Source: an uncultured bacterium (GTDB lineage Bacteria; Cyanobacteriota; Vampirovibrionia; Obscuribacterales; Obscuribacteraceae). From it: a DNA stretch of 64,000 nucleotides. The position numbers and the translations under genes are program-made. Below the pieces are notes generated by a model, which did not search any database, had not been told where the DNA came from, and saw only the letters and a list, made by a program, of their open reading frames with translations. Positions 14,125 to 33,199 of the stretch are shown here, in pieces. Location of the stretch: NCBI GenBank assembly GCA_903835185.1, contig CAILLX010000016.1, positions 62,001 to 126,000 on the forward strand. The letters run 5' to 3'. Within the stretch, counting starts at the first letter, position 1. Each line of letters begins with the position of its first letter.

Positions 14125-15762
14125 TTAACTTGGCTGCAACGCCGTGGGCAGGTGACTGTATAGTGCCTCAATATCAGAGGCCATTTGTCTGCGAAATTCC
14201 TGATATTCGTGAGCATTAACAGTCTGATATGGTTCGGTTTCGCTTTCACTGTCTATGTTAATGTTGTCTGTGCTGATGCGGCTTAGAAATGTGTCACGCC
14301 TGCTTATTGCATTAGCTGCAAGCCTCTTCACTTCCGGGGCTGTACATTTTTGTCCTGCCGAGATGAGATGTTCAAGAGTAGCCAAATATCTCAGGTCAGT
14401 TATACCTTCCCTCAACCCCTCCCATTGCAGCGTAGGAATTACTCCGCAGCGCGCCGGATACGTTGTCATTTGATCACGCAAGTTGCCGGCACGTCCTGTT
14501 GTATCCCAGGCATCGAAGTCATCAAATGGTGAAAACGGGAAAGCTGGTGGATGTTGATAGCAGTATGGAGCTATGCCGTCAGCCTGGGAGTTCCAGAGAT
14601 ATACACCAGAGAGCACTCGGGCAAGGTTAGGCTTCTCCATATGGCATTGCCAGTGGTAGTAAGTAAGTGGTGATTGCAAAGAGGAAGATCTTTCTCTGCG
14701 AGCGAAAAGATCTTTGTTGTTCTGGAGTGAAAACGAGATTATTGTCGGTTTATACCCGATGTCTGCAACATCTTCCATGCGTTTGACCAACTGATGATTA
14801 ATTACTGAGGACATTGATGTCCAGTTGAGAATCTGGCAATAGGCTCCGTGCCCTTGATGTTCGGCAATGAGTCTTGCACTAATCTGATTGCAGCCCGCAG
14901 CGTCCATCTCATCGCTTAAGTAAAATACTGGTGTGAGGCTCTTGAAATGCAGCGCCTCGGCATTGAAAGGGATGGAGCGCAATACTATATGACGAGTAAA
15001 GCCGACGTCCTCGGCGATGTCGATAGCAAGCTGCGCGGTGGCACGATCCTTCTCAGCTATCGATATGCTGCGAAAACCATGATCGTAAATGTCTTGCAGG
15101 TGTAAACGAAATAATTCTGGGGAAACATAGAATTGCCCTTGCTGCTGATCCATCGATCCCCTGTACCAGAGCAGGAGATCTTGAGCAGGTTCCAGTAGAG
15201 TAAACGGCAGGACATCCAGTTCTATTGATAGCTTATGCTCTTGACCTTGTTGGGTTGTAATGTTCAAGCAACCTGAATACAAGCCAGGCGGTGTCTCGCT
15301 CGCTATTTTGACTGATAACCAGATCTGTTTTGACTCGCCTGCGACAAGTGAGGTCACCACGCTATCTGTGAGCCGAACATCAGGTGGGCAGTACCGCCAC
15401 AGTGGGCTTTCACTTCCAATCCCCTGGTTGGCATTCTCAATGTAGCCATCTTCAAGGGGCATTCTGTCATCTTTGAGCAGCAGCTCTGAGACAGTCATGC
15501 GGTTGGATTGAAAGATGCCTACTCCTGAGACATCCCACACGCCAACAACATACATTGCAATCTGGCGCGGGTCTATCTGCCAAGAATCGCGCGCGAGAGA
15601 CGATACAGACAGTTCGATTTGTGCCAGGTCTTCTCTGCACTTGATACTAAAAGAGAACGCCACTGTTTCGCCAGGTGTTCCAAAGCCGCGCAGCTGGCTG
15701 GTTCGGTTTTCTTCTGGTCGAGCACAGTATGGACGGTGCTCGAGAAGTTTAAACGTGCTCAT
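14125..15762 (-). CDS. DUF4091-like, glycoside-hydrolase-like protein
   Basis: 545 aa; C-terminal WEGLREGITDLRYLATLEHL resembles the DUF4091 signature. Confidence 0.7.
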   Translation of the reverse strand: MSTFKLLEHRPYCARPEENRTSQLRGFGTPGETVAFSFSIKCREDLAQIELSVSSLARDSWQIDPRQIAMYVVGVWDVSGVGIFQSNRMTVSELLLKDDRMPLEDGYIENANQGIGSESPLWRYCPPDVRLTDSVVTSLVAGESKQIWLSVKIASETPPGLYSGCLNITTQQGQEHKLSIELDVLPFTLLEPAQDLLLWYRGSMDQQQGQFYVSPELFRLHLQDIYDHGFRSISIAEKDRATAQLAIDIAEDVGFTRHIVLRSIPFNAEALHFKSLTPVFYLSDEMDAAGCNQISARLIAEHQGHGAYCQILNWTSMSSVINHQLVKRMEDVADIGYKPTIISFSLQNNKDLFARRERSSSLQSPLTYYHWQCHMEKPNLARVLSGVYLWNSQADGIAPYCYQHPPAFPFSPFDDFDAWDTTGRAGNLRDQMTTYPARCGVIPTLQWEGLREGITDLRYLATLEHLISAGQKCTAPEVKRLAANAISRRDTFLSRISTDNINIDSESETEPYQTVNAHEYQEFRRQMASDIEALYSHLPTALQPS

Positions 15763-15934: not shown

Positions 15935-16825
15935 TTGCCGGGTTGGCGGCTCGCTACCGCTGGACTGAGGCTGGAGCTCAGGGCAGGGGGAAACGTGTCA
16001 GTAGGAGCAGAAGTGCAGCGAACGATTAGACCTGATGAACTGTCCGCTAGTCAACCGTTATACCGGCTGGGGAGGATATCTTTTGTTGTGAAAAGTGCAG
16101 ATGCTGGCTTTCAAAATGAGCTGGCGCGTCTGTTGCCTGCCTGCCGAGTTGCTCCAGAAGTCATATATGAAATCGAATCTGATGGTAATTTCCGCCAGCT
16201 TGTTGGAGAGATTTTAGGACTGCAGTCCGAGTATCTATGGCTGAGTGCGGCGTGCGTGGTTTCTCCTGCCGGACACAAGGTGCTTATTTCAGGCAATTCC
16301 AGTGCTGGAAAGAGCACTACTGTCTTAGCACTGGCGTTGCGTTATGGCTGGAAGGTGCTGGCTGAGGATCTTACCTGTATAGATCTGCACACCGGCAGGA
16401 TAATCTCATTTGCCACGCCGTTTTCGCTTAAGAAAGGCACGGTTGAACTGTTGCAGGAGACTATCTCAATGGTGCCAGAGCCGGTAGCTCTTGGCGAATG
16501 GGTTCCTCAGAGCGATTTGCATGCTCACGGCGAGTATGGGTCCAACTTGGATCTAAGTTTGTATTTTGGTACTGCTCGCCACGGTGAGCCTATGCAGGTG
16601 TCAGTTTGTTCTCCGGGGGAATATGTGCGCTTGCTATTGCCCTGCTCCAACTTGATTCATTGTGCTCATGGTCCTGATAAGTTAGCTGAATATGTGAGCT
16701 CCGGTACCTGCTATAGAGTTAGCGGTGGCAGCCTTTCTGAGCGCTTAAATCTGATTTTAGAGCTTACACACAGGAGTAGATCAATGGACACAAGCGAGAT
16801 TGGAGGCGCAGCCGATGTTGGATAA
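15935..16825 (+). CDS. HPr-kinase-like P-loop protein
   Basis: Walker A ISGNSSAGKSTT; AEDLTCIDLHTGRIISFATPFSLKKGT as in HprK-related proteins of RiPP loci; alternative GTG start at 15995. Confidence 0.8.
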   Translation: MPGWRLATAGLRLELRAGGNVSVGAEVQRTIRPDELSASQPLYRLGRISFVVKSADAGFQNELARLLPACRVAPEVIYEIESDGNFRQLVGEILGLQSEYLWLSAACVVSPAGHKVLISGNSSAGKSTTVLALALRYGWKVLAEDLTCIDLHTGRIISFATPFSLKKGTVELLQETISMVPEPVALGEWVPQSDLHAHGEYGSNLDLSLYFGTARHGEPMQVSVCSPGEYVRLLLPCSNLIHCAHGPDKLAEYVSSGTCYRVSGGSLSERLNLILELTHRSRSMDTSEIGGAADVG

Positions 16826-17123
16826 AAGATTGATTAGGCGTCAAGATGTACATGCCAAGATCCTGCCAGATGGATATGTTCTGCTCCAGGACAAAGAGAC
16901 GAACTGGGTTTATACGTTGACCCCGCTGGCAGGGATGGTGTGGGAGTTCTGTGATGGCAACAATCTGCTTGAAGATGTTGTCGGTCACATACGTGAAATT
17001 AAAGAAGTTGGTGGAGAACCTGGACTTGAGGAGAATCTCACTGAGCTGGTGGCAGATATGGAACAAGCTGGATTGCTTGTCGGTTGCGAGCGTACGATGG
17101 CTATCACGCAGGAAAAGGAGTAG
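16800..17123 (+). CDS. PqqD-like (RiPP recognition element) protein
   Basis: 107 aa; DGYVLLQDKETNWVYTLTPLAGMVWEFCDGNNLLEDVV...LVADMEQAGLLVG; overlaps the HprK-like gene by 26 bp. Confidence 0.85.
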   Translation: MEAQPMLDKRLIRRQDVHAKILPDGYVLLQDKETNWVYTLTPLAGMVWEFCDGNNLLEDVVGHIREIKEVGGEPGLEENLTELVADMEQAGLLVGCERTMAITQEKE

Positions 17124-17207: not shown

Positions 17208-17347
17208 CTAGTAGTGAGATTCCAAAATAGTGCGACAGTGCTGGTCCATGCCCCGTAGGGGCGCGGTGCACGCGGGCGGATGCAATCCGCCCCTGCGGTA
17301 ATTGTTGCAGAACTTTGTGTTGCAGAACTTTGGAATCTCACTACTAG
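17208..17347. mobile_element. MITE-like element, 140 bp with 19-bp perfect terminal inverted repeats
   Basis: CTAGTAGTGAGATTCCAAA (17208-17226) / TTTGGAATCTCACTACTAG (17329-17347); internal GTAGGGGCGCGGTGCACGCGGGCGGATGCAATCCGCCCC. Confidence 0.8.
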
Positions 17348-17417: not shown

Positions 17418-17609
17418 GTGCCACAAAGTTCACATCGCCATGATAATTCACAACCCAGCTGTGATCCGGCTATGAGTCGTGGCGAGTTTCTGCAGCTGTT
17501 GGTAAACAAGGCGCTATTGGCAGGGACTCTGGTGGCAGTACCTATGCTTGTCGATGCCTTCCCAGCTCCTGCTCAACAACAACTTTTGAGTGGAAAAACC
17601 CCTGGATAG
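17418..17609 (+). CDS. Candidate precursor peptide 1 (63 aa)
   Basis: GTG start aligned with paralogues; VPQSSHRHDNSQPSCDPAMSRGEFLQLLVNKALLAGTLVAVPMLVDAFPAPA-QQQLLSGKTPG. Confidence 0.8.
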   Translation: MPQSSHRHDNSQPSCDPAMSRGEFLQLLVNKALLAGTLVAVPMLVDAFPAPAQQQLLSGKTPG

Positions 17610-17739
17610 GTACCGCCTTTAATCGACAAGTAGCCAAGTAGTCTGCGAGGGTGGTTGGAGATAGAGGCTAGTCAAGCGTTGGCAATGGACTCTGTACTGT
17701 TAAGCTTGCCTGTGTATTTGATTAAACTGGAGCAAAGCT

Positions 17740-17931
17740 GTGTCTCAAAGTTCGCGTCAAGATGATAATTTGCAGCCCAGTTGTGATCCGGCTATGAGCC
17801 GTGGCGAGTTTCTCGGGTTGCTAGTCAATAAGGCGCTATTGGCAGGGACTCTGGTAGCTGTACCTATGCTTGTAGATGCCTTCCCAGCTCCGGCTGCTCC
17901 TCTGCTCAGCGGGCAGATACAGCCGCCATAA
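17740..17931 (+). CDS. Candidate precursor peptide 2 (63 aa)
   Basis: GTG start after ctggagcaaagct; leader near-identical to peptides 1 and 3; tail APLLSGQIQPP. Confidence 0.83.
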   Translation: MSQSSRQDDNLQPSCDPAMSRGEFLGLLVNKALLAGTLVAVPMLVDAFPAPAAPLLSGQIQPP

Positions 17932-17981
17932 ACAACCCGACTTGAACTATTCTGTGTGTTTGATTAAACTGGAGCAAAGCC

Positions 17982-18173
17982 GTGTCTCAAAGTTCGCACC
18001 AAGATGATAATTTGCAACCCAGTTGTGATCAGGCTATGAGCCGTGGCGAGTTTCTCGGGTTGCTAGTCAATAAGGCAATATTGGCAGGGACTCTGGTAGC
18101 TATACCTATGCTTGTCGATGCCTTCCCCGCTCCGGCTCAAGTACCGCCTTTAAGCGGGCACACGCCAGATTAA
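17982..18173 (+). CDS. Candidate precursor peptide 3 (63 aa)
   Basis: GTG start with the same upstream gattaaactggagcaaagc block; tail QVPPLSGHTPD. Confidence 0.83.
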   Translation: MSQSSHQDDNLQPSCDQAMSRGEFLGLLVNKAILAGTLVAIPMLVDAFPAPAQVPPLSGHTPD

Positions 18174-31306: not shown

Positions 31307-33199
31307 ATGTGCGGTATTACCGGGTACCTGAACCTGAATGGACATTCGATCGACCCTGAGGAGAAGATACTCACTCAGATGTGCAAGACGATTGTGCACA
31401 GAGGACCTGATGATGAAGGCGGGTTGATTATGGGACCTGCTGCCATAGGCATGACCAGGCTTTCTATTATTGATCTCAAGACAGGGCACCAGCCTATAGG
31501 CACAGAAGATGGCTCAGCCTGGATCGTTTTCAACGGGGAGATCTATAACTTTCAAGAGTTGCAAGACAGGCTCATCTCTCGTGGACACCTTCTTAAAACA
31601 CGCACAGACACCGAGACTATCGTTCATCTTTATGAAGAGTACGGAGTGGAGTGTCTGCAATTTCTTGAGGGCATGTTTGCTTTTGCCATCTGGGACAATG
31701 AACGGCAGCGCTTATTTGTGGCCCGTGACCGTCTAGGAGAAAAGCCTCTGCACTGGGGTGTGTTTGATGGTCAGTTTATCTTCGGCTCAGAGATCAAAAC
31801 TATTCTTGCTCATCCCAAGGTAACCCGGCAGCTTGATCCTGTTGCTCTCCAGAAATATCTTGCTCTGGAATATGTGCCGTCTCCGCATTCCATTTTTGCC
31901 GGTATTCATAAGCTTGCACCAGCACATTTTATGCTTGTCGAGCGTGGTCAGGTAAAAGCAAGAAGGTATTGGGAAGCAAGCAACCAGACTGTCCATGTCT
32001 CAGAGAAAGAGGCTTGTGAGCGGCTCATTGAGCTACTCGGTACTTCAACTCGGCTCAGACTGATTTCTGATGTACCGTTGGGTATCTTCCTCTCAGGTGG
32101 TATTGATTCTTCTGCAATTGCGGCCCTGGCAGCCAGGGGAGCGATGAGTCCGATTAAGACGTTTTCTATCGGGTTCGCTGACAAGTCTTTTGATGAAAGC
32201 GACTATGCTAAAGCTGTGGCTGCCCATATCGGCTGCGAGCACCAGATGGCAGTTTTTGACTCCACTACTGCTGTGGAGACTATGGAAGAGCTTTGGCAGG
32301 TTCTCGACGAGCCGCTTGCCGATGCATCAATTATTCCTACTTATTTCCTCTCTAAGATGGCTCGGCAGGAGGTGACTGTTGCTCTGTCCGGTGAAGGTGG
32401 TGATGAGCTTTTTGGTGGATATCCTACTTATCAAGCGCATCGACTGGCTGCTCTTTGGAAGCTTATCCCTTACCCTTTGCGGCACAGTGTGCTTGAGCCT
32501 GTGCTCAAAAACCTTCCTGTATCACACAATAATCTGAGCTTTGATTATAAGGTCAAGCGCTTTATCGCCTCTGTTGACGAGCCACCATTCCGGAGGCATC
32601 TACGCTGGATGGGCTCAATTCCGGTGCCTGAGCACACAAAGCTCATTTCTCCCGATGTTATTGCTTTTGCTGGAGAGGATGAACTGTATCCTGACCTGCC
32701 GCTCAGCTCGCCTATATCTAAGGAGAGCCGTAATGTCATCGCAAAGATAATGCAGCTTGATCTGGTGACTTATCTGGCAGATGATCTTCTTGTCAAGTCG
32801 GATCGTGCATCGATGGCGGCGTCTCTTGAGGTCAGGTTGCCTTTCCTGGCTTATCCGCTTGTTGAGTTTGCTGCAACGCTTCCGTCGTCATTTAAGGTGA
32901 AACAGTTTACTACCAAGTATCTTCTCAAGAAGGCTATGGCTCCGTATCTGCCCAGTCAAACAATCAATAGACCAAAGAAAGGTTTTGGTATTCCAGTTGC
33001 AAAGTGGCTGGGCTGTGAGTTTGCTCCAATCGTGGCGGAGCTATTGAGTGAAGCATTTGTCAAGCGGCAGCAGATATTTGTCTGGCCTTACATTGAAGGA
33101 TTGCTCCGGGAGCATCGTGAAGGGCGTGTTGATCGTCGCAAAGAGCTGTGGACACTTCTCATGTTCCAGTGGTGGTGGCGCAAATTCTTCGCCGCCTGA
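31307..33199 (+). CDS. asnB: Asparagine synthase (glutamine-hydrolysing)
   Basis: MCGITGYLN N-terminal Cys; FLSGGIDSSAIAAL PP-loop; GEGGDELFGGYPTY. Confidence 0.96.
   Translation: MCGITGYLNLNGHSIDPEEKILTQMCKTIVHRGPDDEGGLIMGPAAIGMTRLSIIDLKTGHQPIGTEDGSAWIVFNGEIYNFQELQDRLISRGHLLKTRTDTETIVHLYEEYGVECLQFLEGMFAFAIWDNERQRLFVARDRLGEKPLHWGVFDGQFIFGSEIKTILAHPKVTRQLDPVALQKYLALEYVPSPHSIFAGIHKLAPAHFMLVERGQVKARRYWEASNQTVHVSEKEACERLIELLGTSTRLRLISDVPLGIFLSGGIDSSAIAALAARGAMSPIKTFSIGFADKSFDESDYAKAVAAHIGCEHQMAVFDSTTAVETMEELWQVLDEPLADASIIPTYFLSKMARQEVTVALSGEGGDELFGGYPTYQAHRLAALWKLIPYPLRHSVLEPVLKNLPVSHNNLSFDYKVKRFIASVDEPPFRRHLRWMGSIPVPEHTKLISPDVIAFAGEDELYPDLPLSSPISKESRNVIAKIMQLDLVTYLADDLLVKSDRASMAASLEVRLPFLAYPLVEFAATLPSSFKVKQFTTKYLLKKAMAPYLPSQTINRPKKGFGIPVAKWLGCEFAPIVAELLSEAFVKRQQIFVWPYIEGLLREHREGRVDRRKELWTLLMFQWWWRKFFAA

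What the first reader, a model, noticed from the sequence alone, without database searches (positions are those of the whole stretch)
17418..18173. Equal-length 11-residue hypervariable tails behind a conserved signal-like leader, with an invariant Ser
After the conserved ...VDAFPAPA, each ORF has exactly 11 residues: QQQLLSGKTPG, APLLSGQIQPP, QVPPLSGHTPD. Only L-S-G is shared, and Ser is the only invariant hydroxyl residue. The preceding segment has a hydrophobic core ending in an A-x-A-like site (PAPA), so signal peptidase could release three distinct 11-mers. The HprK-like kinase makes the invariant Ser a natural phosphorylation candidate (inference).
Basis: partly seen in the sequence, partly recalled or inferred. 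Interest (0 to 1): 0.8.

Follow-up and report, generated by a model that had tools for sequence, protein, structure and literature searches.

The report
Three precursor genes for phosphorylated peptides
Beside a peptide-binding protein and a kinase-like enzyme, a non-photosynthetic relative of cyanobacteria carries three small genes with one constant, export-signal-like front and changing short tails; they look like precursors of short peptides that are phosphorylated on one conserved serine and exported, a so far undescribed branch of a peptide class reported in Bacillota in 2026.

Summary
Three GTG-start ORFs of 63 aa (17418-17609, 17740-17931, 17982-18173) share a 52-aa leader (dN/dS 0.11-0.24) and end in 11-residue tails in which Ser is the only shared hydroxyl residue. 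They follow an HprK-like kinase gene and a PqqD-like (RRE) gene. The same leader family occurs 30 times in 15 of 53 Obscuribacterales genomes, exactly the 15 that carry this kinase. Tails run from 4 to 65 residues, yet Ser/Thr sits at one column, three residues after an AxA-like site, in 15 of 22 diverged members (permutation p=5e-5). The window's Ser falls in that column in copies 1 and 3 and one residue off in copy 2. The PqqD family's best PDB match is LppB, the RRE of the 2026 'linear polyphosphorylated peptides' (LPP), whose kinase phosphorylates core Ser3.

Best reading: precursors of an LPP-like phosphopeptide RiPP whose leader is unlike any LPP or lasso leader. It has no [YW]xxP and resembles a Tat/Rieske signal anchor that has mostly lost its second Arg. 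It is not an LPP member: the leader motif was tested and not met, and no dedicated peptidase or exporter was found. Caveats: 11-residue length is local, the window kinase has Gln where most have His, and cleavage and phosphorylation are inferred.

The parts
15935..16825 (+). HprK-like kinase (TTG start; the first ~24 residues are doubtful). P-loop GNSSAGKST, LAEDLTCID motif; Gln in place of the His found in most homologues
   Evidence: TIGR04352 HprK-related kinase A, 35.6 bits, below its cut-off; AlphaFold2 pLDDT 86, best fold matches PEPCK and HPr kinase 1kkl/3tqf; His column
16815..17123 (+). PqqD-like stand-alone RRE protein; overlaps the end of the kinase gene (likely translational coupling), GGAGG before ATG
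   Evidence: PF05402 33.1 bits, cut-off 23.4; profile A4 best PDB hit 9x8z_B = LppB, E 7.6e-4
17418..17573 (+). precursor copy 1, leader (52 aa): Tat-like SRGEFL, hydrophobic stretch, VDAFPAPA
17574..17609 (+). precursor copy 1, tail QQQLLSGKTPG and stop
17610..17633 (+). remnant directly behind copy 1's stop, reads VPPLIDK*; 16 nt match copy 3's tail with one mismatch: looks like an older tail displaced by a 33-nt insertion
   Evidence: repeat family D2; 13-nt exact match never reached in 3000 shuffles
17740..17895 (+). precursor copy 2, leader
17896..17931 (+). precursor copy 2, tail APLLSGQIQPP and stop
17982..18137 (+). precursor copy 3, leader
18138..18173 (+). precursor copy 3, tail QVPPLSGHTPD and stop

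Best explanation
The three ORFs are precursor genes of a phosphopeptide RiPP. The PqqD-like protein (RRE) binds the constant leader and presents the tail to the HprK-like kinase, which phosphorylates, perhaps repeatedly, the conserved Ser of L-S-G. In most relatives, and perhaps here through the NTP_transf_5 gene 52 kb away on the same contig, the phosphate is then decorated with a sugar or nucleotide, as in the lasso peptide pseudomycoidin. The leader also serves as an export signal or membrane anchor, since no ABC exporter gene was found next to the family, and a signal peptidase may cut it near the A-x-A site. Shown: genes, selection, family-wide conservation, gene association, fold families. 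Inferred: binding, phosphorylation, decoration, export, cleavage.
For: Purifying selection on leader and on LSG.TP. 30 precursors in the same 15 of 53 genomes as the kinase; most members lie within about 5 kb of a kinase gene and within 2 kb of a PqqD gene in the stretches fetched, and the window's own PqqD gene ends 295 nt before copy 1. Ser/Thr at the column three after AxA in 15 of 22 representatives, p=5e-5; Ala at -1 in 18 of 22. 29 of 30 tails hold Ser or Thr, and tails are rich in S, T, G, P, N. Kinase model has the HprK/PEPCK fold. PqqD profile's best PDB match is LppB of the LPP system. NTP_transf_5 sits next to the kinase in the sister genome G022, and its 61% identical orthologue is on the window's contig. 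LPP and paeninodin/pseudomycoidin set the biochemical precedent.
Against: The window and G022 kinases have Gln where 19 of 24 have His, presumably the His of the H-K-D-D catalytic set (motif from PMC9266682). One member (L087) has the tail RFGN with no Ser or Thr although a kinase gene lies beside it. Seven of 22 representatives lack Ser/Thr in the column. No leader-RRE binding was tested; the [YW]xxP motif bound by known RREs is absent. Only one NTP_transf_5 gene exists in the genome and it is not adjacent.
Confidence: 0.66

Rival explanations
1. The peptides are uncleaved, membrane-anchored micro-proteins: the leader is a Tat- or Sec-inserted signal anchor like that of the Rieske protein, and the short tail outside carries a modified Ser. 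The kinase and NTP transferase build a phosphate-linked glycan on it, so the product is a membrane-held glycan carrier or primer rather than a free peptide.
For: Outside the order the leader profile finds PetC (Rieske) signal anchors...GALYPVVNYFIPP..., and a Tat lipoprotein signal; single members weakly match PetC anchor and TAT models. Rieske Tat signals are uncleaved (PMC7317946). Loci often hold sugar transferases and sugar nucleotidyltransferases and an NPP-like phosphodiesterase fold.
Against: Matches to PetC are weak (E about 5e-4 per genome, 0.011 against Pfam). Twin Arg is present in 1 of 30, and substitution of Arg is poorly tolerated in Tat signals. An A at AxA -1 is kept in 24 of 30, which hints at cleavage.
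Confidence: 0.2
2. The peptides are exported or membrane-anchored but the kinase does not act on them; it phosphorylates another substrate and the gene pairing reflects a larger envelope-polysaccharide locus.
For: The window kinase may be impaired (Gln for His); relatives carry the genes in loci with sugar transferases.
Against: Exact genome-by-genome match of kinase and peptide (15 of 15), the Ser/Thr column, and a minimal cassette of only kinase, PqqD and peptides in the window.
Confidence: 0.1
3. Lasso or graspetide precursors, that is, macrocyclic RiPPs.
For: PqqD and HprK also occur in lasso clusters; in several relatives an ATP-grasp peptide maturase (TIGR04187) lies next to a precursor.
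Against: No lasso cyclase or B2 protease was found beside the precursors in the genes scanned; the window tails hold no acidic acceptor at ring position 7-9 after a Gly; the ATP-grasp gene is absent from G000 and G022 and pairs with another small ORF family (c7).
Confidence: 0.04

Closest known systems
Linear polyphosphorylated peptides (LPP; lpp cluster of Paenibacillus alginolyticus, Popov et al. 2026, PMC13381572)
   Same: HprK-like kinase, stand-alone RRE, NTP transferase (in relatives), one to three precursors with constant N-terminus and variable C-terminus, conserved Ser at core position 3 after the presumed cut, no macrocyclase, often beside polysaccharide genes; the RRE family's best PDB match is LppB
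   Different: Leader lacks the YxxPxVLxHQxIxFETxxS motif and instead looks like a Tat/Rieske signal anchor ([ST]RxxF...AAPKIxDKFLVPPAxA); no SipW-like peptidase or ABC exporter found nearby; found in Obscuribacterales, not Bacillota
Paeninodin and pseudomycoidin lasso peptides (PadeK/PsmK kinase, PsmN nucleotidyltransferase)
   Same: HprK-like kinase, PqqD-like RRE and, in relatives, NTP_transf_5 acting on a Ser in the tail
   Different: No lasso cyclase or B2 protease found; Ser is internal, not C-terminal; leader differs
Rieske iron-sulphur protein PetC signal anchor (Tat substrate)
   Same: Layout RxxF - hydrophobic stretch - P..V..[YF][IL][VI]PP; found by the leader profile
   Different: Tail is 4-65 residues, no Fe-S domain; second Arg missing in 29 of 30
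HPr-rel-A and SynChlorMet cassettes (TIGR04352, TIGR04248)
   Same: HprK-related kinase with PqqD-related protein
   Different: Scores far below the cut-offs (35.6 of 200; 20.8 of 100)

Membership tests
LPP (linear polyphosphorylated peptides) | HprK-like kinase gene in the cluster | tested here: met
   window 15935-16825; HprK/PEPCK fold
LPP (linear polyphosphorylated peptides) | stand-alone RRE (PqqD-like) | tested here: met
   PF05402 above cut-off; LppB is the best PDB match
LPP (linear polyphosphorylated peptides) | leader with [YW]xxP RRE-binding motif | tested here: not met
   no conserved [YW]xxP; 27 of 30 members have none at all and the three matches lie at unrelated places
LPP (linear polyphosphorylated peptides) | archaeal-type (SipW-like) signal peptidase in the cluster | tested here: not met
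   TIGR02228: no hit in G000, none above cut-off in the order and none at these loci
LPP (linear polyphosphorylated peptides) | NTP transferase in the cluster | tested here: inconclusive
   adjacent in G022 and several relatives; in G000 52 kb away on the same contig
LPP (linear polyphosphorylated peptides) | MsbA-like ABC exporter in the cluster | tested here: not met
   motif scan within 8 kb of precursors found only two short ATPase genes (232 and 381 aa); a crude test
LPP (linear polyphosphorylated peptides) | phosphorylation of core Ser3 by the kinase | not testable with these tools
   Ser/Thr column conserved; activity needs an assay
Lasso peptides (paeninodin type) | macrolactam cyclase and B2 protease adjacent | tested here: not met
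   no Asn-synthase-like or transglutaminase-like gene beside the kinase in the window or among neighbours scanned; the Asn synthase at 31307-33199 is 13 kb away
Tat signal peptides | twin arginine in SRRxFLK | tested here: not met
   second Arg in 1 of 30; first Arg and Phe invariant

The most novel reading that the evidence does not exclude
A Tat/Rieske-type signal anchor has been turned into a RiPP leader that both recruits the RRE and kinase and exports or anchors the product, so that a phosphorylated (and perhaps phosphoglycosylated) serine peptide is displayed at the membrane or released without any dedicated exporter or leader peptidase; tails are replaced in blocks while the Ser is kept.
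Probability: 0.3. Interest if true: 0.78.

Novelty: new variant of a known kind. Interest (0 to 1): 0.58.

Why it matters
It would extend phosphate-bearing linear RiPPs, so far described for LPP in Bacillota only, to the non-photosynthetic sister lineage of cyanobacteria, with a leader of a different kind. Signal-anchor-like leaders would be missed by miners that look for [YW]xxP leaders, and the system would link peptide export and peptide modification in one leader.

Tried and rejected
Chance or non-coding repeat: rejected, dN/dS 0.11-0.24. A plain Tat substrate: weakened, twin Arg in 1 of 30. Lasso or graspetide product: no cyclase beside it in the genes scanned; ATP-grasp absent from this genome and from G022. 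Strict 11-residue rule: rejected. Sequence search of the kinase profile against PDB gave mostly P-loop noise; the fold search was needed. No tRNA in the window and no Rfam match in the region. Paper searches for a RiPP with a Tat-like leader or for Obscuribacter RiPPs found none. The primary paeninodin paper is not held.

Full report
WHAT IS THERE. The window is G000:C16:62001-126000 of a 4.35-Mb assembly. Kinase relatives found in named genomes are Candidatus Obscuribacterales, Melainabacteria and cyanobacterial MAGs, so the host is a non-photosynthetic Cyanobacteriota of the order Obscuribacterales (inference from these relatives). The cassette reads: HprK-like kinase (15935-16825), PqqD-like protein (16815-17123, overlapping the kinase end), then three peptide genes (17418-17609, 17740-17931, 17982-18173), all on +. 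No further copies of the peptide were found in the genome.

SELECTION AND THE ABRUPT BORDER. Leader pairs differ mostly at third codon positions, dN/dS 0.11, 0.12 and 0.24. The 186-nt repeat (30 nt upstream plus 52 codons) stops at the last PAPA codon in all three copies. In the tail, copies 1 and 3 keep L,S,G,T,P although each of those codons differs synonymously, so the tail core is selected too. Directly behind the copy-1 stop lies GTACCGCCTTTAATCG, matching copy 3's tail GTACCGCCTTTAAGCG; 0 of 3000 shuffles reach the 13-nt exact match. The simplest reading is a 33-nt block inserted in front of an older tail, that is, tails change in blocks (inference from one case).

FAMILY. Iterated profile search found 30 members, and a profile search of all 53 held genomes of the order returned the same 30 in 15 genomes plus two marginal hits. 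The kinase is found in the same 15 genomes. Another 385 genomes of the phylum gave no clear member; the marginal hits whose frame was read are PetC/Rieske N-termini and one Tat lipoprotein signal. Consensus: xxxSCDxxxSRKEFxxxxVxxAAxAGxLxAAPxxxDKFLxPPAxAxxS. Arg and Phe are invariant; the residue after Arg is K, G, A, E, S, T, Q or, once, R. Tails after AxA are 4-65 residues, rich in S, T, G, P and N and poor in K, R, E and hydrophobics. Ala at the AxA -1 position: 24 of 30, 18 of 22 representatives. Ser/Thr three residues on: 22 of 30, 15 of 22 representatives; shuffling residues within tails reaches 15 in 5e-5 of trials. The window's Ser is in that column in copies 1 and 3 and one residue off in copy 2. 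G038 has an independent tandem triplet with S/T/G tails (L078).

PARTNERS. In relatives the recurring neighbours are kinase, PqqD, NTP_transf_5 (PF14907), an ATP-grasp peptide maturase (TIGR04187) with its own small ORF family, an enzyme with the NPP/phosphonoacetate-hydrolase fold, sugar transferase and sugar nucleotidyltransferase. In G022 the order is c25 - NTP_transf_5 - kinase - PqqD; the window has c25 - kinase - PqqD, and the NTP_transf_5 orthologue (61% identity) sits 52 kb away. The NPP-like and ATP-grasp genes were not found in the window's genome; the assembly is 85% complete.

KINASE AND RRE. The kinase scores 35.6 bits with HprK-related kinase A (cut-off 200); its model (pLDDT 86) matches PEPCK and HPr kinases by fold. 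P-loop and the [DE]D motif are present. The window kinase and G022's carry Gln at the column where 19 of 24 have His; published work on lasso kinases calls a His-Lys-Asp-Asp set essential (PMC9266682). I equate this His with that one by position only. The PqqD family's best PDB match over its full length is 9x8z_B (E 7.6e-4), which is LppB of the LPP system.

MECHANISM. LPP provides the precedent: kinase LppK puts several phosphates on core Ser3, RRE LppB presents the leader, SipW-like LppS cuts it, and the product is linear (PMC13381572). The window system has the same kinase and RRE and a Ser at the like position, but its leader is of another kind. Since no ABC exporter or S26 peptidase lies by the family (motif scan; TIGR02228), the leader itself probably carries the export function (TatC is present in the genome). 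Whether the tail is freed or stays anchored is open.

MEMBERSHIP AND NOVELTY. It works like LPP (inference) but is not filed as LPP, because the leader motif was tested and not met, and the peptidase and exporter were not found. Neither Pfam nor NCBIfam gave a confident model for the leader family. I rate it a new variant of a known kind.

Noticed in passing
window 17208-17347: Element of about 140 nt with 30-nt inverted ends (87% complementary) between the PqqD gene and copy 1; 39 matching pieces in the genome: a MITE-like or REP-like repeat.
   Followed up: partly
L063, L064, L065, L066, L070, L072, L074 (e.g. L064:11152-11367 +): Small ORF family (LPFFLRAWWLRD...PLWSLYSDPLCDV..D) beside an ATP-grasp peptide maturase (TIGR04187): likely a graspetide-type precursor next to the phosphopeptide genes; no NCBIfam match.
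   Followed up: partly
L071:5449-6744 (-) and 14 relatives: Family without a Pfam hit, folds like phosphonoacetate hydrolase/NPP phosphodiesterases, found next to the precursors.
   Followed up: partly
L063 (6173-13158) and L071 (8620-15654): Several kinase paralogues near each other; some have lost the His or carry stops, suggesting decay or new roles.
   Followed up: no
L062:9910-10287 (-): G022 precursor tail is a long PAPTPAPP/PEPPAPTP repeat after AELSQ.
   Followed up: no
window 14125-15762 (-): 545-aa protein without a confident family, 54% identical to a gene at the same place in G022; weak GH123 N-terminal match.
   Followed up: no
window 31307-33199 (+): Asparagine synthase (PF00733 with glutaminase domain) 13 kb downstream; probably ordinary, not a lasso cyclase.
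   Followed up: no
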